A stretch of 64,000 nt of DNA from Polyangiaceae bacterium (GTDB lineage Bacteria; Myxococcota_A; Polyangia; Polyangiales; Polyangiaceae): the NCBI GenBank assembly GCA_019637295.1, contig JAHBVX010000011.1:143735-207734 (forward strand), given 5' to 3'. Under the pieces are notes generated by a model. It ran no database searches, was not told the origin of the DNA, and saw only the letters and a list, made by a program, of their open reading frames with translations. This document shows, in pieces, positions 32,530 to 64,000 of this stretch (position 1 is the first letter of the stretch; each line of letters opens with the position of its first letter). The translations under genes and the position numbers were made by a program.

Positions 32530-32557
32530 AAAAAAGCTTCACCCCGCCGAGACGGGG
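32530..32557 (-). terminator. Candidate intrinsic terminator of the TPR kinase gene
   Basis: On the minus strand a short GC stem (CCCCGT/GCGGGG, 32557-32542, including one G-U pair) sits at the end of the kinase gene, followed by the stop codon and a run of seven T after an AAGC. The T-run begins 6 nt after the stem, farther than ideal, so efficiency is uncertain. Confidence 0.4.
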
Positions 32558-34914
32558 GCCCGGGCCGGGGAAAGAGGCGGCCACGCTGCGCGAGCCCGCT
32601 CTTTGATGCGCGCGCGGGCCTCGGGGAAGCCAGGCGCCTCCCGGAGCGGCGCCAAGACCGGGCAGTACTCGAGCCAGTTGGAGTCGGCCAGTCCGAGGGC
32701 GGCGGCCGCGCGCACGTGCTCGAGTACGGCCGCGGCGTCGCCGACGTAGGCGAAGAGCTCGGCAGCCAACTGGTGCTTCAGCGCGCTGAAGCGTGGCGCG
32801 TCGTCCGCGCGAACGAACTGCTCCTGCACGATGGCGCGCGAGACGGCGGAGAGCTCGCCGTTCGCGATCACGTCACGAACGATCATACCGTACTGCAGCG
32901 CCGGCGCGGTCCCGCTCTGCACCCGCACCCGCTCCATGCGCGCCCTCGAGTCCGGGTGCCACAGCGCCAAGCGCGCCTCCAGCGCCCCGCGCGCTACGGA
33001 GTTCCAGTCTTCGTCGGGCAACTCCCGCAGTACGGAGTCCACGACCTCCCAACGTCCGAGCAACGCGTTGCTCCGGGCGATGGCGTGTCGGCTGCGCAGC
33101 CTGGGGTCGAGGGATACCGCTACCTGGTGCCGCCGGAGGGACTCTTCGAGTTCGCCGCTCTCGGCCATCAAGTCGGCGAGCAAGTCGTGCGCGTCGGCCA
33201 GTTGGGGCGAGAGGCGAAGCGCTTCGATCACGTGCGCGGCGGCGGCAGCGACGTCGAGCGCGACGTAACGGACTGCGGCGACCGCCAGCCACGACTCGCC
33301 ACGCTCCGGCGCGGCGTCCAGCGCACGGGCGGCGAGCTCCTTCGCCCCGCGCCCTAGCTCCGTCCCGCCTTCCTGGAACCACACCTGAGCGCGAGCGCGG
33401 GCGTACGCGCTCAAGATGGTCGGGTCGTCCGGCGCGCGCTCGTGCGCCCTCGCGAGGATGTCGACTGCCTTGAGCGCTGCGCCCTCCCAGAGCCGGTGAA
33501 AGCAGGCGCGACCCTGGAGGTACAGCTCGATGGCTTCGGGATCCGTGACCGATGTTCGTCGCGCCCCGCTGCCGTGCACTGCCAGCGCGGCGGCGATGCT
33601 CTCGGCGGCTTCGTCGCTCACCACGAGCAGCTCCGAAGCGGAGCGGTCGAACCGCTTGGCCCAAAGCTGGAACCCGCTGTCCACCCCGAGCAGCCGCACG
33701 GTGACTCGCACCTTGTCCGCGATGCGACGCAGGCTGGCATCCACCACGACGTCGACGCCGAGTTCGCGTCCGAGGTCTCGTGGATCGAGCTCTCGATCCC
33801 GATAGCGCATCACGACGGTCCGGGGCCGGACCCGGAGCTTGGGCACCATGCTGAGCGTATCGATCAGATCCTCCGTCAAGCCGTCCACGAGATCGTCGTC
33901 TTCGGCGGGACCCGCGTTGCGAAAGGGTAGGACCGCGACCGACTTGTCCCCCGGCTTGGTCTCCGCGGGCGCGCTGGGGCGCGGCGCCAGGCTCAGCGCG
34001 ATCGTGGGTTCATCCACCATCGTTGGCGCTACGGACGTCAGCGCCGCGCTCACTGCCTGGGCGCTTGCTGGGCGCGCGTCGGGCTCTCGCTCCAGACAGT
34101 GCGCCACGATGCGAGCGAGCCCCGCCGGGACGTTGGGGACGAACCGGGACAGGTCCGGCGCGGCGGCGACCAGGCGCGCCGTCGCCAGCGTGTACGCGGT
34201 CTCGCCCTCGAACGGCAGCCGCCCGGATAGCAGCTCGAACAGCAGGACGCCGAGCGCGTAGAGGTCCGTGCGCGCATCGAGGGAGCGGCTGCCGCGGACC
34301 TGCTCGGGAGCCATGTACGCGGGCGTGCCGACGGTGCCTCCTTGGGTTTGTGCGTCCGGCGAGTCGTCACCGCGCGCGCAGGCGATGCCGAAGTCCGTGA
34401 TCACCACGCGTCCCCCCTTCTCGAGCAGCACGTTGTCCGGCTTGAGGTCACGGTGAATCACCCCGGCGACGTGCGCTGCCGCGAGACCGGCGCAAATGTC
34501 GAGCGCGATGGCGGTCGCGCGCGCGGCGGGCAGGCGCCCTTCGGTCGCGAGCTGGGACGAGAGCGACTCGCCCTCGACGTACTCCATCGTGAGAAACTTC
34601 TCTCCGTCGTGCTCCCCAATGTCGAAGGTGCGCGCCACGTTGGGGTGGGTGACGCGTCGCGCGAGCTTCACCTCGCGGCGGAAACGCTCAACGATGCGCT
34701 CGGTCGCGAGCAGATCCTTGCGCAACACCTTGAGCGCGACGATCTCGTCGAGTTCCTCGTCCAGAGCCTTGTAGACGCTACCCATGCCGCCGCTGCCCAG
34801 CATGGCCAGCAGCCGATAGCGCTCGGCGACCAACGCGTGTGCTCCGGCGGCGGTGGCCTCTCGACCTGGAGTCGGGCTCGAGGTCTCGTCGGTCGGGTCG
34901 GAGCGCGGGGACAT
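32539..34914 (-). CDS. Ser/Thr kinase with TolB-like and TPR regions
   Basis: A 791-residue cytoplasmic kinase. The kinase domain (~30-290) has Gly-Ser-Gly-Gly-Met-Gly, the lysine in Val-Ala-Leu-Lys, His-Arg-Asp-Leu-Lys-Pro-Asp-Asn, DFG and [10 protein letters not shown], so it should be active. From ~320 a TolB/FlgO-like segment (Ser-Val-Ala-Val-Leu-Pro-Phe, then Gly-Leu-Thr-Glu-Asp-Leu-Ile-Asp-x-Leu) appears, as in many CyaA-type adenylate cyclases. From ~480 on, tetratricopeptide-like helices fill the C-terminus. The region after the kinase may bind a partner or another signalling molecule. No transmembrane helix is evident. It is transcribed away from murA with a repeat element between. 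Confidence 0.9.
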
Positions 34915-34992: not shown

Positions 34993-35138
34993 CTCAAGAG
35001 CTGTCGAATAATCGACAGCTCTTTCATTCTTTCACCGGGGAGGCACGCGCCTCCCCGCCCCGCCGAAGTGAATTCGTCGGGGCCCCACCCCTCGCGGGCC
35101 GGCTCCGCCGGCGCGAACTGGGTCAATTCTTGACAGCC
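34993..35138 (+). repeat. Structured dispersed repeat, copy A (146 bp)
   Basis: This element fills much of the 302-nt gap between a kinase and murA. It contains a 12-bp perfect stem (34996-35007 with 35012-35023), a 35036-35056 GC hairpin, an 11-position stem (35057-35067 with 35073-35083) and a GCCGGC-tcc-GCCGGC hairpin. A second copy, inverted and 29 bp shorter, is at 62073-62189. Ends resemble CTGTC and TGACAG, suggesting a REP/MITE-like element. Whether it is mobile, or transcribed as RNA, cannot be told here. Confidence 0.8.
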
Positions 35139-35216
35139 CTTCAGCCGAGGATTTCGTGGGCGAGGCCGAAACCGCGCTTGCTCCCGCCGTGCGCTCGGCG
35201 TACCTGGTGGCGCGTC

Positions 35217-60249: not shown

Positions 60250-60822
60250 ATGCTTGCTCTGCAGAACCCTACCCCCGAGGAGTGGACCCGCGTCGTGCTC
60301 GCGGACTTCGACTCGTTCTTGATCGATCACGCGGCCTGCGAGCGCAAGGCCAGCGCGACGGGGCTGTCCCTCGTGGTGAAATACCCGGATCGCGCTGAGA
60401 TGCTGGAGCCGCTGATCGAGTTCGCCCGCGAGGAGCTGGAGCACTTTCACATCGTCTACCGGCTGTGTCGGGACCGCGGGCTGGTGATGGCCGATGACTA
60501 CCGCGACCCGTACGTGCGCGGGCTGCGGGAGCTCATTCGGACCGCCTCGGACAAGACCCTCCTCGATCGCCTGCTGGTGGCGTCCGTCGTCGAAGCGCGC
60601 GGCTGCGAGCGACTGGGTCTCGTGGCCGAGCGCGTCTCGGAGCCCGAGCTGGCGGCGACCTACCGGGAGCTCACGCGGGCAGAGTCCCGCCATCGAGGCC
60701 TCTTCGTGCGGTTGGCCAAGCTCTATTACCCGGAACCGGAAGTGCTCGAGCGCGCGGGCGAGCTGTACGCCGCGGAGGGGGCGCTGATCCAGAGCTTGCC
60801 CCTCCGCGCTGCCGTGCATTGA
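60250..60822 (+). CDS. miaE: tRNA-(ms2io6A37) hydroxylase MiaE
   Basis: A 190-residue diiron protein that hydroxylates 2-methylthio-N6-isopentenyl-adenosine at position 37 of tRNAs reading codons starting with U. Diiron ligands visible: Glu in Cys-Glu-Arg-Lys-Ala, Glu-x-x-His in Arg-Glu-Glu-Leu-Glu-His-Phe-His, Glu in Val-Val-Glu-Ala-Arg and Glu-x-x-His in Ala-Glu-Ser-Arg-His. I start at the Met of Met-Leu-Ala-Leu-Gln-Asn-Pro-Thr-Pro-Glu-Glu-Trp; an in-frame ATG is 13 codons upstream. MiaE needs oxygen, in keeping with an aerobe. The stop overlaps the next ATG by 1 nt. Confidence 0.88.
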   Translation: MLALQNPTPEEWTRVVLADFDSFLIDHAACERKASATGLSLVVKYPDRAEMLEPLIEFAREELEHFHIVYRLCRDRGLVMADDYRDPYVRGLRELIRTASDKTLLDRLLVASVVEARGCERLGLVAERVSEPELAATYRELTRAESRHRGLFVRLAKLYYPEPEVLERAGELYAAEGALIQSLPLRAAVH

Positions 60823-62246
60823 TGGCGCGGCACAAGGAGTCGCTCGTCCCGCGTTATCTGGAGCGCTACGCCACGAAGCAGTGGGCGGTTGCGCGCCGGG
60901 TGCAGGGCACCTTCGAGCACGTGCTGGTCGTCCCTGCTCTGAACGAGCGCGTGGGCCTGCTCGACGGGTACCGGCAGGCTGCGCGCGCAGCCCCGGGGCC
61001 GGTCCTGGTCATCCTCGTGGTCAACGCCCATGACGCAGTGCCGGCAGAGTGGCTGCTCGGCAACCAGCGACTGCTCGCGCAGCTCGCGGCTCTGGGCCCC
61101 GCGGCGCACCTCGCCGAGGGCGCGGTCCAGATCGCCGATCGGGACTTCAGCGTGCTGGCGCTGGACCGCAGCAGCGCGGGCCTCCGGGTGCCCCGCGAGC
61201 AAGGCGTCGGGTTGGCTCGCCGCATCGGTGCCGACATCGCGCTGGGCCTGTGGTGGCTCGGGCGACTGGGGTCGCCCTGGATCGCGACCACGGACGCCGA
61301 CGCTTGGCTGCCGCCCGAGTTCTTTCACACCCTCGCGCACGCACCCGGGGACGCGGCGCTGCTCGCTCACCCCTATGTCCACGGCCGCAGCTCCGACCCG
61401 CGGCTCGACGCAGCCTACGCCGCGTACGAGCTCTGGCTCCGCTATCATGTGCTTGGGCTCCGCTGGGCCCGATCGCCCTATGCGTTGCACACCCTCGGCA
61501 GCACGTTGAGCGTGGCGGCCGGCGCCTACGCCGCGGTGCGCGGCTTTCCCAAGCGGGCGGCTGGCGAGGACTTTCACCTGGTCGCCAAGCTGCTCAAGGT
61601 GGGAAGGGTTCACTGCCCCCGCACCCCGCCCATCGTGCTCGAGGCGCGCGCCTCTGCGCGGGTCCCCTTCGGCACCGGGCCCGGCGTGCAGCGGGTAGCC
61701 CAGGCGCTCGACACCGCCGCCGGCTTCTCGCTGCTCGCGCCGGAGGCGTTCTCAGCCCTGCGCCGCGTGCTCGATGCGCTCGACGAGGTGGCCGCCAGCG
61801 GCTCACCCTGGGCGCTCGAGCGCGTGCTCGGCGACGGCTCGCTGCCGCAGGCATGCTGCCGGGTGCTCGAGGCAAGCGGGCTGCCCAGCGAGGCCCAGCA
61901 GCTGGGCCGCCACGCTCATGGCGCCGAGTCCCGCCGCCGTCGCCTCCACGACCGCTTCGACGCGCTCGCGTCCCTCCGGCTGCTCCACGCGGCGCGGGAC
62001 GGGGGCTTGGGCACGCTGCCCTGGCGAGAGGCCCTCGCCCGGGCGCCGTTCACCCCCGCTCTCCCGGTTGGTCTGTCAGGAATCGACCCAGTTCACGCCG
62101 GCGAAGCCGGCCCGCGTGGGGTGGGGCCCCAACGAATTGACTTCGTTGGGGCGGGGAGGCGCGCTGTCGATCTTTCGACAGCTCTTGAGCTGCGCGCCGC
62201 GCTCGACGCCATGCGCTCGCTCGACGCGCCGTCCCTCGCGCCGTGA
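60822..62246 (+). CDS. Family 2-like glycosyltransferase carrying an in-frame repeat insertion
   Basis: A 474-residue cytoplasmic protein. The GT-A fold begins His-Val-Leu-Val-Val-Pro-Ala-Leu-Asn-Glu; the nucleotide-sugar site is Thr-Thr-Asp-Ala-Asp-Ala-Trp-Leu-Pro-Pro, followed by a Gly-Phe-Pro-Lys and Gly-Glu-Asp-Phe-His near the acceptor site. This is like GT2 enzymes, though sequence beyond these is unusual. Residues ~418-456 are encoded by an inverted copy of the 34993-35138 repeat, 117 bp or 39 codons, so the frame continues. Without it the tail would run directly to Glu-Leu-Arg-Ala-Ala. The ATG overlaps the MiaE stop by 1 nt. Confidence 0.78.
   Translation: MARHKESLVPRYLERYATKQWAVARRVQGTFEHVLVVPALNERVGLLDGYRQAARAAPGPVLVILVVNAHDAVPAEWLLGNQRLLAQLAALGPAAHLAEGAVQIADRDFSVLALDRSSAGLRVPREQGVGLARRIGADIALGLWWLGRLGSPWIATTDADAWLPPEFFHTLAHAPGDAALLAHPYVHGRSSDPRLDAAYAAYELWLRYHVLGLRWARSPYALHTLGSTLSVAAGAYAAVRGFPKRAAGEDFHLVAKLLKVGRVHCPRTPPIVLEARASARVPFGTGPGVQRVAQALDTAAGFSLLAPEAFSALRRVLDALDEVAASGSPWALERVLGDGSLPQACCRVLEASGLPSEAQQLGRHAHGAESRRRRLHDRFDALASLRLLHAARDGGLGTLPWREALARAPFTPALPVGLSGIDPVHAGEAGPRGVGPQRIDFVGAGRRAVDLSTALELRAALDAMRSLDAPSLAP
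62073..62189 (-). repeat. Structured dispersed repeat, copy B (117 bp, inverted)
   Basis: Read on the minus strand, this matches the 34993-35138 element for most of its length with the 12-bp stem shortened (GCTGTCGA/TCGACAGC), the 35025-35052 part missing, and the 11-bp stem (62126-62136 with 62142-62152) now perfect. Stem position 6 is G-C in A and A-T in B, a compensating change, and position 7, mismatched in A, is paired in B. It lies wholly inside the glycosyltransferase CDS and is 39 codons long. Confidence 0.85.
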
Positions 62247-62359
62247 GTGTCGCCCGCGCGACACAGCCGTCTGGTTCACGGCAAAAGCCCCTGAGCAGCC
62301 GAGATCCCGCAATTCTCCGGGGTCTCTTGGAGGCACGGCTGTTGCTTCGGGTCGCGTCG

Positions 62360-64000
62360 ATGGCTCGCGCGCTCCGGACGACCCTCGGCCTGCTGACGCT
62401 CGTCGCCTCTGTCGCGGCGGCGACGCCGCTGCAGGCGGCCGGCCGGCTCATCGGGCCGTTTGGGAGCGCCCCAGCGGCGGAGCGGGTGGAGCTCGCGCTG
62501 TCCGCCGGCACCACCCGCCACACCGTCTGGCTGTCCGCGACGCTCACCCCGTCCGGACCACGCTTTGCCTGGGTGCTGCCCGTCACGCCCGGCACTCGCG
62601 TCGACGCCGCGGGCAACGCCTTCCTCGAGGCCCTCGATGACGCCACCGCGACGCGCATCGCGCCGCCCGTCGGGACCCCCTCGTGCGGCAACTCGGGCCC
62701 GCCTGCCACCCAGAGCACCGCGGCCGAGTCCGACGTGGCCCGCATCTTCCCGACCCACGTCAGTCAGGTGTCGAACCTCACCGAGCTGCAGGCCGAGGTC
62801 GCCGCCGTCGGACTGGCGCTCACGCAGCAGGACGTGCAGCGGCTCGCGCCCCACGCTGACGGCAGTTTCCTGCTGCTGACCTACGAGTCTTCCGGGAAGC
62901 GAGTGCGCACCGATGCGTTGCGACTGACGGTGCCCGGCTCGGCGCCCCCGCTAGCCACCGGGCTGTTGGCGGGCTCGAGCACGACCGAGCTGGTCAGCCA
63001 TGTACTCTCGGACGAGCGCGCGCGACTCCAGGGAGAGGAGCTGTCCGCCGCCGACCTGTCGCCCACCTGGCTCGGCAAGTCCGGTCGCAGCGACTACCTG
63101 GAGCTGCGCGGGCAGTGGCTGGCCGCGGGGCCGGGTGGTCGCTTCGTCGTGGAGGCCAGCGGCGCCTCGGCGCTGTTTCAGTGGACGCTGCTGCCCGGGC
63201 AAGCTGCGGCGATCGCGCCGGCGGTGCATGGCTACTTCACGCGCACGTTCTTGCTGGGCCAGTCACCCGCGGCGGACGCGTGCCTCATGAACGTCTGGGC
63301 AGCGCGGGAGGCGGGCAAGCTCGGCGCGGTCGTGTCGCGCTACTGCCCTCCCGCGACGCTCGGCACCGTACCCGGCGCCGAGCTCGAGTGCGACGCGAAC
63401 GCCGGCGCGGGCCAGACCGCGGCTAGCGAGCTGGTCTGCGGACAGGCTGACGACGTCGCCGCCGCCTTGGCCGAGCACAACGCGGCCAGCCTGCGCGTCA
63501 CTCGTCACGTCAGCGCCCTCGCCGCTGCCGCACCTGCCAGCGTCGCCATCGAGTCGGGCGGCAAGGCGGGCGTAGGCGTCGTCGTCACGGCGTCGGGCGT
63601 CGAGCTCGAGGGCTGCACCACGGGCGCCGGGGGCGGCGGACCTGGCGTCGGCTCCGGAGGGTCCCACGGCGGCTCGGGCTGGCCGCTGCCGGGGCCAGAG
63701 GAGCCTGTACCCCCGCCCGTCTACGAGCAGCAGCCGAGCACGGACGTGGGCATCTACTGCGGGGGTTCCAGCGAGAGCTCGGGCACCTGTAGCGGCGACT
63801 CGTCGTCGTCGAGCGGGGACGGGGCGTGCTCCGGTGACTCCTCGTCGTCGAGTAGCGACAGCGACTGCGGCGGCGACTCGTCGTCGAGCAGCAGCGACGG
63901 CGCGTGCAGCGGCGACTCGGGCGGCTCGGGGGAAGCGTGCAGCGGAGACTCCTCCAGCAGCTCTGGCTCGGGCTGCTCGGGCGACAGCGGCGGCAGCAGT
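62360..64000 (+). CDS. Exported DUF2330-like protein with Ser/Asp/Cys repeat tail (3' partial)
   Basis: The frame opens at the ATG at 62360 and runs off the window, so at least 547 residues. A signal peptide ends Ala-Thr-Pro-Leu-Gln-Ala-Ala. The next ~400 residues are a soluble exported domain with Phe-Ala-Trp-Val-Leu-Pro-Val and repeated Ala/Leu-rich strands that resemble DUF2330-type proteins, though weakly. After a Gly/Pro linker (~residue 425) the tail is almost only Ser, Gly, Asp and Cys, with repeated Cys-Ser-Gly-Asp-Ser-Ser-Ser units up to the end. It may be a surface fibre or anchor region. No other gene shares the operon; 113 nt separate it from the glycosyltransferase. Confidence 0.78.
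   Translation, partial: MARALRTTLGLLTLVASVAAATPLQAAGRLIGPFGSAPAAERVELALSAGTTRHTVWLSATLTPSGPRFAWVLPVTPGTRVDAAGNAFLEALDDATATRIAPPVGTPSCGNSGPPATQSTAAESDVARIFPTHVSQVSNLTELQAEVAAVGLALTQQDVQRLAPHADGSFLLLTYESSGKRVRTDALRLTVPGSAPPLATGLLAGSSTTELVSHVLSDERARLQGEELSAADLSPTWLGKSGRSDYLELRGQWLAAGPGGRFVVEASGASALFQWTLLPGQAAAIAPAVHGYFTRTFLLGQSPAADACLMNVWAAREAGKLGAVVSRYCPPATLGTVPGAELECDANAGAGQTAASELVCGQADDVAAALAEHNAASLRVTRHVSALAAAAPASVAIESGGKAGVGVVVTASGVELEGCTTGAGGGGPGVGSGGSHGGSGWPLPGPEEPVPPPVYEQQPSTDVGIYCGGSSESSGTCSGDSSSSSGDGACSGDSSSSSSDSDCGGDSSSSSSDGACSGDSGGSGEACSGDSSSSSGSGCSGDSGGSS
63750..64000 (+). repeat. Low-complexity repeats coding for Ser/Asp/Gly/Cys
   Basis: Degenerate tandem units of about 24-45 bp containing GACTCGTCGTCG-like blocks encode Cys-Ser-Gly-Asp-Ser-Ser-Ser. 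The array continues beyond the window edge. It may be hard to assemble with short reads. Confidence 0.8.

What the first reader, a model, noticed from the sequence alone, without database searches (positions are those of the whole stretch)
34993..35138. A highly structured repeat element with a covarying base pair in two copies
Copy A here and copy B at 62073-62189 share about 100 alignable bases in opposite orientation. The 11-position stem changes from G-C to A-T at position 6 and gains a pair at position 7, evidence of selection on pairing. Ends are CTGTC-like. It may be a REP/MITE family, or a structured RNA element.
Basis: seen in the sequence. Interest (0 to 1): 0.6.

Follow-up and report, generated by a model that had tools for sequence, protein, structure and literature searches.

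The report
Mobile hairpin element at stop codons
The two hairpin repeats belong to a family of about 60 tiny transposon-like elements in this myxobacterial genome that mostly sit exactly on gene stop codons, and whose folded centre is conserved in about 20 related genomes while their ends are not.

Summary
The repeat is real. Copy A is a 144-bp element between two TCA triplets, one of about 60 dispersed copies in its 7.65-Mb genome. Copy B is a decayed, internally deleted copy. The family behaves as a MITE: inverted ends AGRGCTGTC, no coding capacity, insertion into C|TNA|G with a 3-bp TNA duplication. The duplication is best shown in a sister family, where 4 copies carry TGA on both sides and 3 carry TCA on both sides. 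In 47 of 55 copies the duplicated TGA is the stop codon of the neighbouring gene, against 40% of non-coding CTGAG sites (p about 7e-12). Orthologues in a sister species lacking the element mostly end at or near the same residue. The core (two hairpins plus a C-rich tract) recurs across Polyangiales and related families with unrelated terminal repeats, and its stems covary strongly. REP/RAYT membership is not supported. No matching transposase was found. Core function is inferred: most likely a transcript-end hairpin or terminator, untested.

The parts
34994..34996 (.). Left target-site duplication TCA (outer base C at 34993)
   Evidence: boundary alignment; TNA duplication established in sister family
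34997..35140 (-). Copy A, full-length element (144 bp); 'sense' taken as the - strand because it runs in the direction of the gene whose stop codon it abuts in most copies
34997..35005 (+). Left terminal inverted repeat AGAGCTGTC
34996..35023 (.). Hairpin H1, 12 pairs, hypervariable 4-nt loop; followed on + strand by TCATTCTTTC (terminator-like)
35036..35057 (.). Hairpin H2 CGGGGAGGC/GCCTCCCCG (core)
35058..35082 (.).
35083..35091 (.). C-rich tract CCCCACCCC, present in most related elements
35098..35112 (.). Hairpin H4 GCCGGC/GCCGGC
35132..35140 (-). Right terminal inverted repeat (AGGGCTGTC on - strand)
35141..35143 (.). Right target-site duplication TCA (TGA on - strand; outer base G at 35144)
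62070..62194 (+). Copy B, decayed copy (about 125 nt, right-end TGA lost), inverted relative to A and read in frame inside a glycosyltransferase gene (60819-62246)

Best explanation
It is a non-autonomous DNA transposon (MITE) family. SHOWN: about 60 copies; short inverted ends; no coding capacity; a C|TNA|G target with a 3-bp TNA duplication (decisive in the G032 sister family; in this genome the duplication is always TCA/TGA); strong preference for the TGA of stop codons. The gene keeps its stop because the duplication regenerates TGA, and the element becomes the first bases of the 3' untranslated region. INFERRED: a DDE transposase of the IS5/PHIS type moved it in trans, and that enzyme is now absent from, or unrecognised in, this genome. 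INFERRED: insertions survive mainly at stop codons because this site is harmless, and the conserved core and H1 hairpins act at transcript ends as a bidirectional terminator or 3'-end-protecting structure, which would explain why the core is preserved while the ends diverge.
For: About 60 places in the genome; the 40 scored copies are 90-100% identical to A. Fixed ends with C/TCA...TCA/G. G032 family: TGA/TGA in 4 copies and TCA/TCA in 3, all in C-TNA-G. Stop codon at the boundary in 47/55 versus 40% of non-coding CTGAG and 7.6% of all CTGAG; also 4 of 5 G056 copies plus one borderline, and 5 of 8 G032 copies. Orthologues in G001 mostly end at or near the same residue without the element. C|TNA|G is the target described for NuwaII of the PHIS superfamily, related to bacterial IS5 (PMC4482050). 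Core covariation: 27 cells changed on both sides versus 8.4 shuffled, at most 6 when slid. H1 with its tail is the one terminator-like site at copy A.
Against: No autonomous element with these ends found in the genome: IS5 domain PF13340 absent from G000, only two weak PF01609 hits without the terminal motif. IS5 elements of G032 have other terminal repeats. The left TCA is TCG in about 30% of copies, scattered on the tree, more than neutral decay of one base should give. In G000 all duplications read TCA, so target and element end cannot be separated there alone. G001 orthologues are only about 35-81% identical in protein, so these are not true empty sites. No expression data support termination.
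Confidence: 0.72

Rival explanations
1. Purely selfish MITE: the core hairpins are kept because the transposition machinery needs them or because palindromes are copied efficiently, with no benefit to the host; stop codons are occupied only because insertions elsewhere are removed by selection.
For: Target motif plus purifying selection partly explains the stop-codon bias; 40% of non-coding CTGAG are stops. Partial and internally deleted copies are common.
Against: Core conserved and covarying between genomes while terminal repeats, the usual transposase sites, are replaced. 85% at stops exceeds the 40% expected from non-coding sites alone.
Confidence: 0.35
2. REP/REPIN-like element moved by a REP-associated tyrosine (Y1) transposase.
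For: Hairpin ends, high copy number, and GTAG REPs are known to supply the TAG stop codon to flanking ORFs (PMC3733652).
Against: No GTAG/CGTC tag; 3-bp duplications in the sister family; PF01797 absent at E<=0.001 from G002, G004, G005, G022, G026, one weak hit in G000.
Confidence: 0.04
3. Dispersed gene for a trans-acting structured RNA.
For: Very stable fold, covariation in the core.
Against: About 60 copies per genome at gene ends, in either orientation of the core relative to the gene in different species; no Rfam match.
Confidence: 0.05

Closest known systems
Bacterial MITEs in general (e.g. Correia elements, RUP, SPRITE; review PMC10969869)
   Same: Size of 100-200 bp, inverted ends, short duplication, high copy number, stem-loops; SPRITE has terminator-like sequence
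   Different: Here the interior, not the ends, is conserved between species; no partner IS recognised; strong stop-codon placement with a TNA target
PHIS superfamily NuwaII / bacterial IS5 family (PMC4482050)
   Same: C|TNA|G target with 3-bp TNA duplication
   Different: Known NuwaII are eukaryotic; no IS5-type transposase with these ends found in carriers
GTAG/CGTC REPs with RAYT (PMC3733652)
   Same: Palindromic, multi-copy, intergenic, may supply stop codons
   Different: No GTAG/CGTC tag, longer, has a target duplication, no RAYT in most carriers
Rickettsia palindromic elements (as described in the review PMC10969869)
   Same: Copy B is read in frame within a protein gene
   Different: Only one clear case here; most copies are extragenic

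Membership tests
MITE | Short, non-coding, multi-copy dispersed element | tested here: met
   144 bp, about 60 places
MITE | Terminal inverted repeats | tested here: met
   AGAGCTGTC / AGGGCTGTC in full copies
MITE | Target-site duplication | tested here: met
   TNA identical on both sides in 7 G032 copies with two alternatives TGA/TCA; constant TCA in G000
MITE | Ends shared with an autonomous IS | tested here: inconclusive
   None found with PF01609, PF13340 or TIR motifs in G000; a terminal-repeat search in G106 found no IS. Only two transposase families were searched, and the parent may be extinct
IS5/PHIS-type mobilisation | C|TNA|G target and 3-bp duplication | tested here: met
   target from PMC4482050
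IS5/PHIS-type mobilisation | DDE transposase of that family present with matching ends | tested here: not met
   therefore not filed as an IS5 derivative, only 'works like'
REP/REPIN (RAYT) | GTAG or CGTC tag | tested here: not met
   sequence
REP/REPIN (RAYT) | Associated Y1 transposase | tested here: not met
Rfam RNA family | Covariance-model match | tested here: not met
Intrinsic terminator | Stem-loop followed by U-rich tract | tested here: inconclusive
   H1 on + strand: 12-bp stem then TCATTCTTTC; activity not testable with these tools

The most novel reading that the evidence does not exclude
The core is a functional cargo, such as a bidirectional mRNA-end module, that has been repackaged repeatedly between unrelated transposon ends across Polyangiales and related families and delivered precisely to stop codons: a mobile 3'-untranslated-region system.
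Probability: 0.25. Interest if true: 0.75.

Novelty: new variant of a known kind. Interest (0 to 1): 0.52.

Why it matters
MITEs are usually recognised by their ends, with arbitrary interiors. Here the interior is conserved and covarying over many genera while the ends change, and insertion targets the stop codon, regenerating it. If the core works at transcript ends, mobile DNA has been wiring the 3' ends of genes across a bacterial class, and this is directly testable with reporters. It also shows how a TNA target preference and selection can place elements at stop codons in GC-rich genomes.

Tried and rejected
IS200/IS605-type insertion without duplication was first favoured from G000 alone and dropped after the G032 duplications. 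RAYT rejected. IS110-like bridge RNA considered and dropped: no extended conserved target. Group II intron mobilisation considered because a reverse-transcriptase fragment adjoins a broken copy in G014; single fragment, no support. Autonomous parent sought by PF13340, PF01609, TIR motifs and a G106 terminal-repeat search: a 1.3-kb interval with matching ends in G106 proved to be two MITE ends flanking a probable antitoxin/Fic-Doc-like gene pair, judged by eye. Literature searches found no description of this family in the held papers.

Full report
OBSERVATION. Copies A and B are as described. A folds far better than shuffles. The genome holds about 60 places with the element; a profile search over the fetched loci gave 57 matches, 49 of them treated as full length, the complete ones 152 nt counted with the two duplications and outer bases. 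Two main subfamilies differ by GCC...GTC versus AAC...GTT in H3, exactly the A/B difference. That is one ancestral change, so the two-copy argument alone does not prove selection.

ANATOMY. On the + strand of the window: C, TCA, AGAGCTGTC (inverted end, within hairpin H1), U-rich linker, hairpin H2, hairpin H3, CCCCACCCC, hairpin H4, right end GACAGCCCT, TCA, G. The H1 loop is the most variable stretch of an otherwise uniform element. The only terminator-like site in the region is H1 with TCATTCTTTC.

INSERTION MECHANISM. In G000 both ends are TCA, so duplication and element end cannot be told apart there. In the complete genome G032 a related family shows TGA on both sides in four copies and TCA on both sides in three, each inside C-TNA-G (read by eye from that alignment). 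This is a 3-bp duplication. G056 and G004 elements also carry TCA at their ends, while G005 and G026 elements end in TA/CTAG. C|TNA|G is the target described for NuwaII of the PHIS superfamily, which is related to bacterial IS5 (PMC4482050). The IS5 link is an inference: no transposase with matching ends was found.

STOP CODONS. In 47 of 55 G000 copies with an intact right end, the duplicated TGA is the stop codon of the gene running into the element. Of non-coding CTGAG sites in the same loci 40% are stops, p about 7e-12 (gene calls come from a simple codon model of mine). Many G001 orthologues end at the same residue, others within a few codons, some differ. The bias recurs in G056 and G032. 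Copy A is an exception: it lies between the divergent starts of a protein kinase gene (32539-34914, - strand) and an EPSP-synthase/MurA-type gene (35217 onward; Pfam). Why more than the expected share sits at stops is unresolved: selection against other intergenic sites, or transposase preference.

CORE CONSERVATION. H2 and H3 with the C-rich tract occur in many Polyangiales genomes and in other families of the class, with unrelated terminal repeats. On 15 sequences 95% of cells pair, 27 cells change on both sides (shuffled 8.4, slid at most 6), and 8 of 19 pairs have such changes. These sequences were chosen by me and aligned without the G032/G020 and inserted-loop variants, which also pair by eye. 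One search sampled 144 genomes with strict filters, so its 14 positives are a lower bound; blast found 16 of 59 relatives, a few of these weak and probably chance. Several copies in G161 match A only up to position 122-123, so the right end is the part that has diverged.

COPY B. Orthologues of the glycosyltransferase gene align up to about residue 416; the following 40-odd residues come from copy B, and the frame continues into what may be the native tail. B has lost the boundary TGA.

FUNCTION. Placement at transcript ends, very stable hairpins on both strands, a terminator-like H1, and conservation of structure rather than ends together favour a role at mRNA 3' ends. This is inference; a purely selfish element is not excluded.

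Noticed in passing
window 62070-62194: Copy B is read in frame in a glycosyltransferase gene, adding about 40 residues not aligned in orthologues.
   Followed up: partly
window 34996-35023 and all copies: The 4-nt loop of hairpin H1 is hypervariable while its stem is nearly invariant.
   Followed up: partly
L129:3091-3124: Minimal remnant: left hairpin fused to the right end with the whole core deleted.
   Followed up: no
L063:1502-1815: In G014 a truncated element is directly joined to a reverse-transcriptase (RVT_1) fragment.
   Followed up: partly
L326:610-1930: In G106 two MITE ends flank a small gene pair resembling an antitoxin and a Fic/Doc protein (by eye), next to what looks like a tRNA 3' end.
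   Followed up: partly
L250:1-1535: In G026 an IS with ends GCACTACTTTGACA sits exactly at the TAG boundary of a core-bearing element.
   Followed up: no
L286, L271, L272: The C-rich tract downstream of H3 seems to change together with the arms of H2, suggesting an alternative pairing.
   Followed up: no
window 63750-64000: End of the window encodes a Gly/Ser/Cys/Asp repeat tail (CSGDSSSSS) in the ORF starting near 62327.
   Followed up: no
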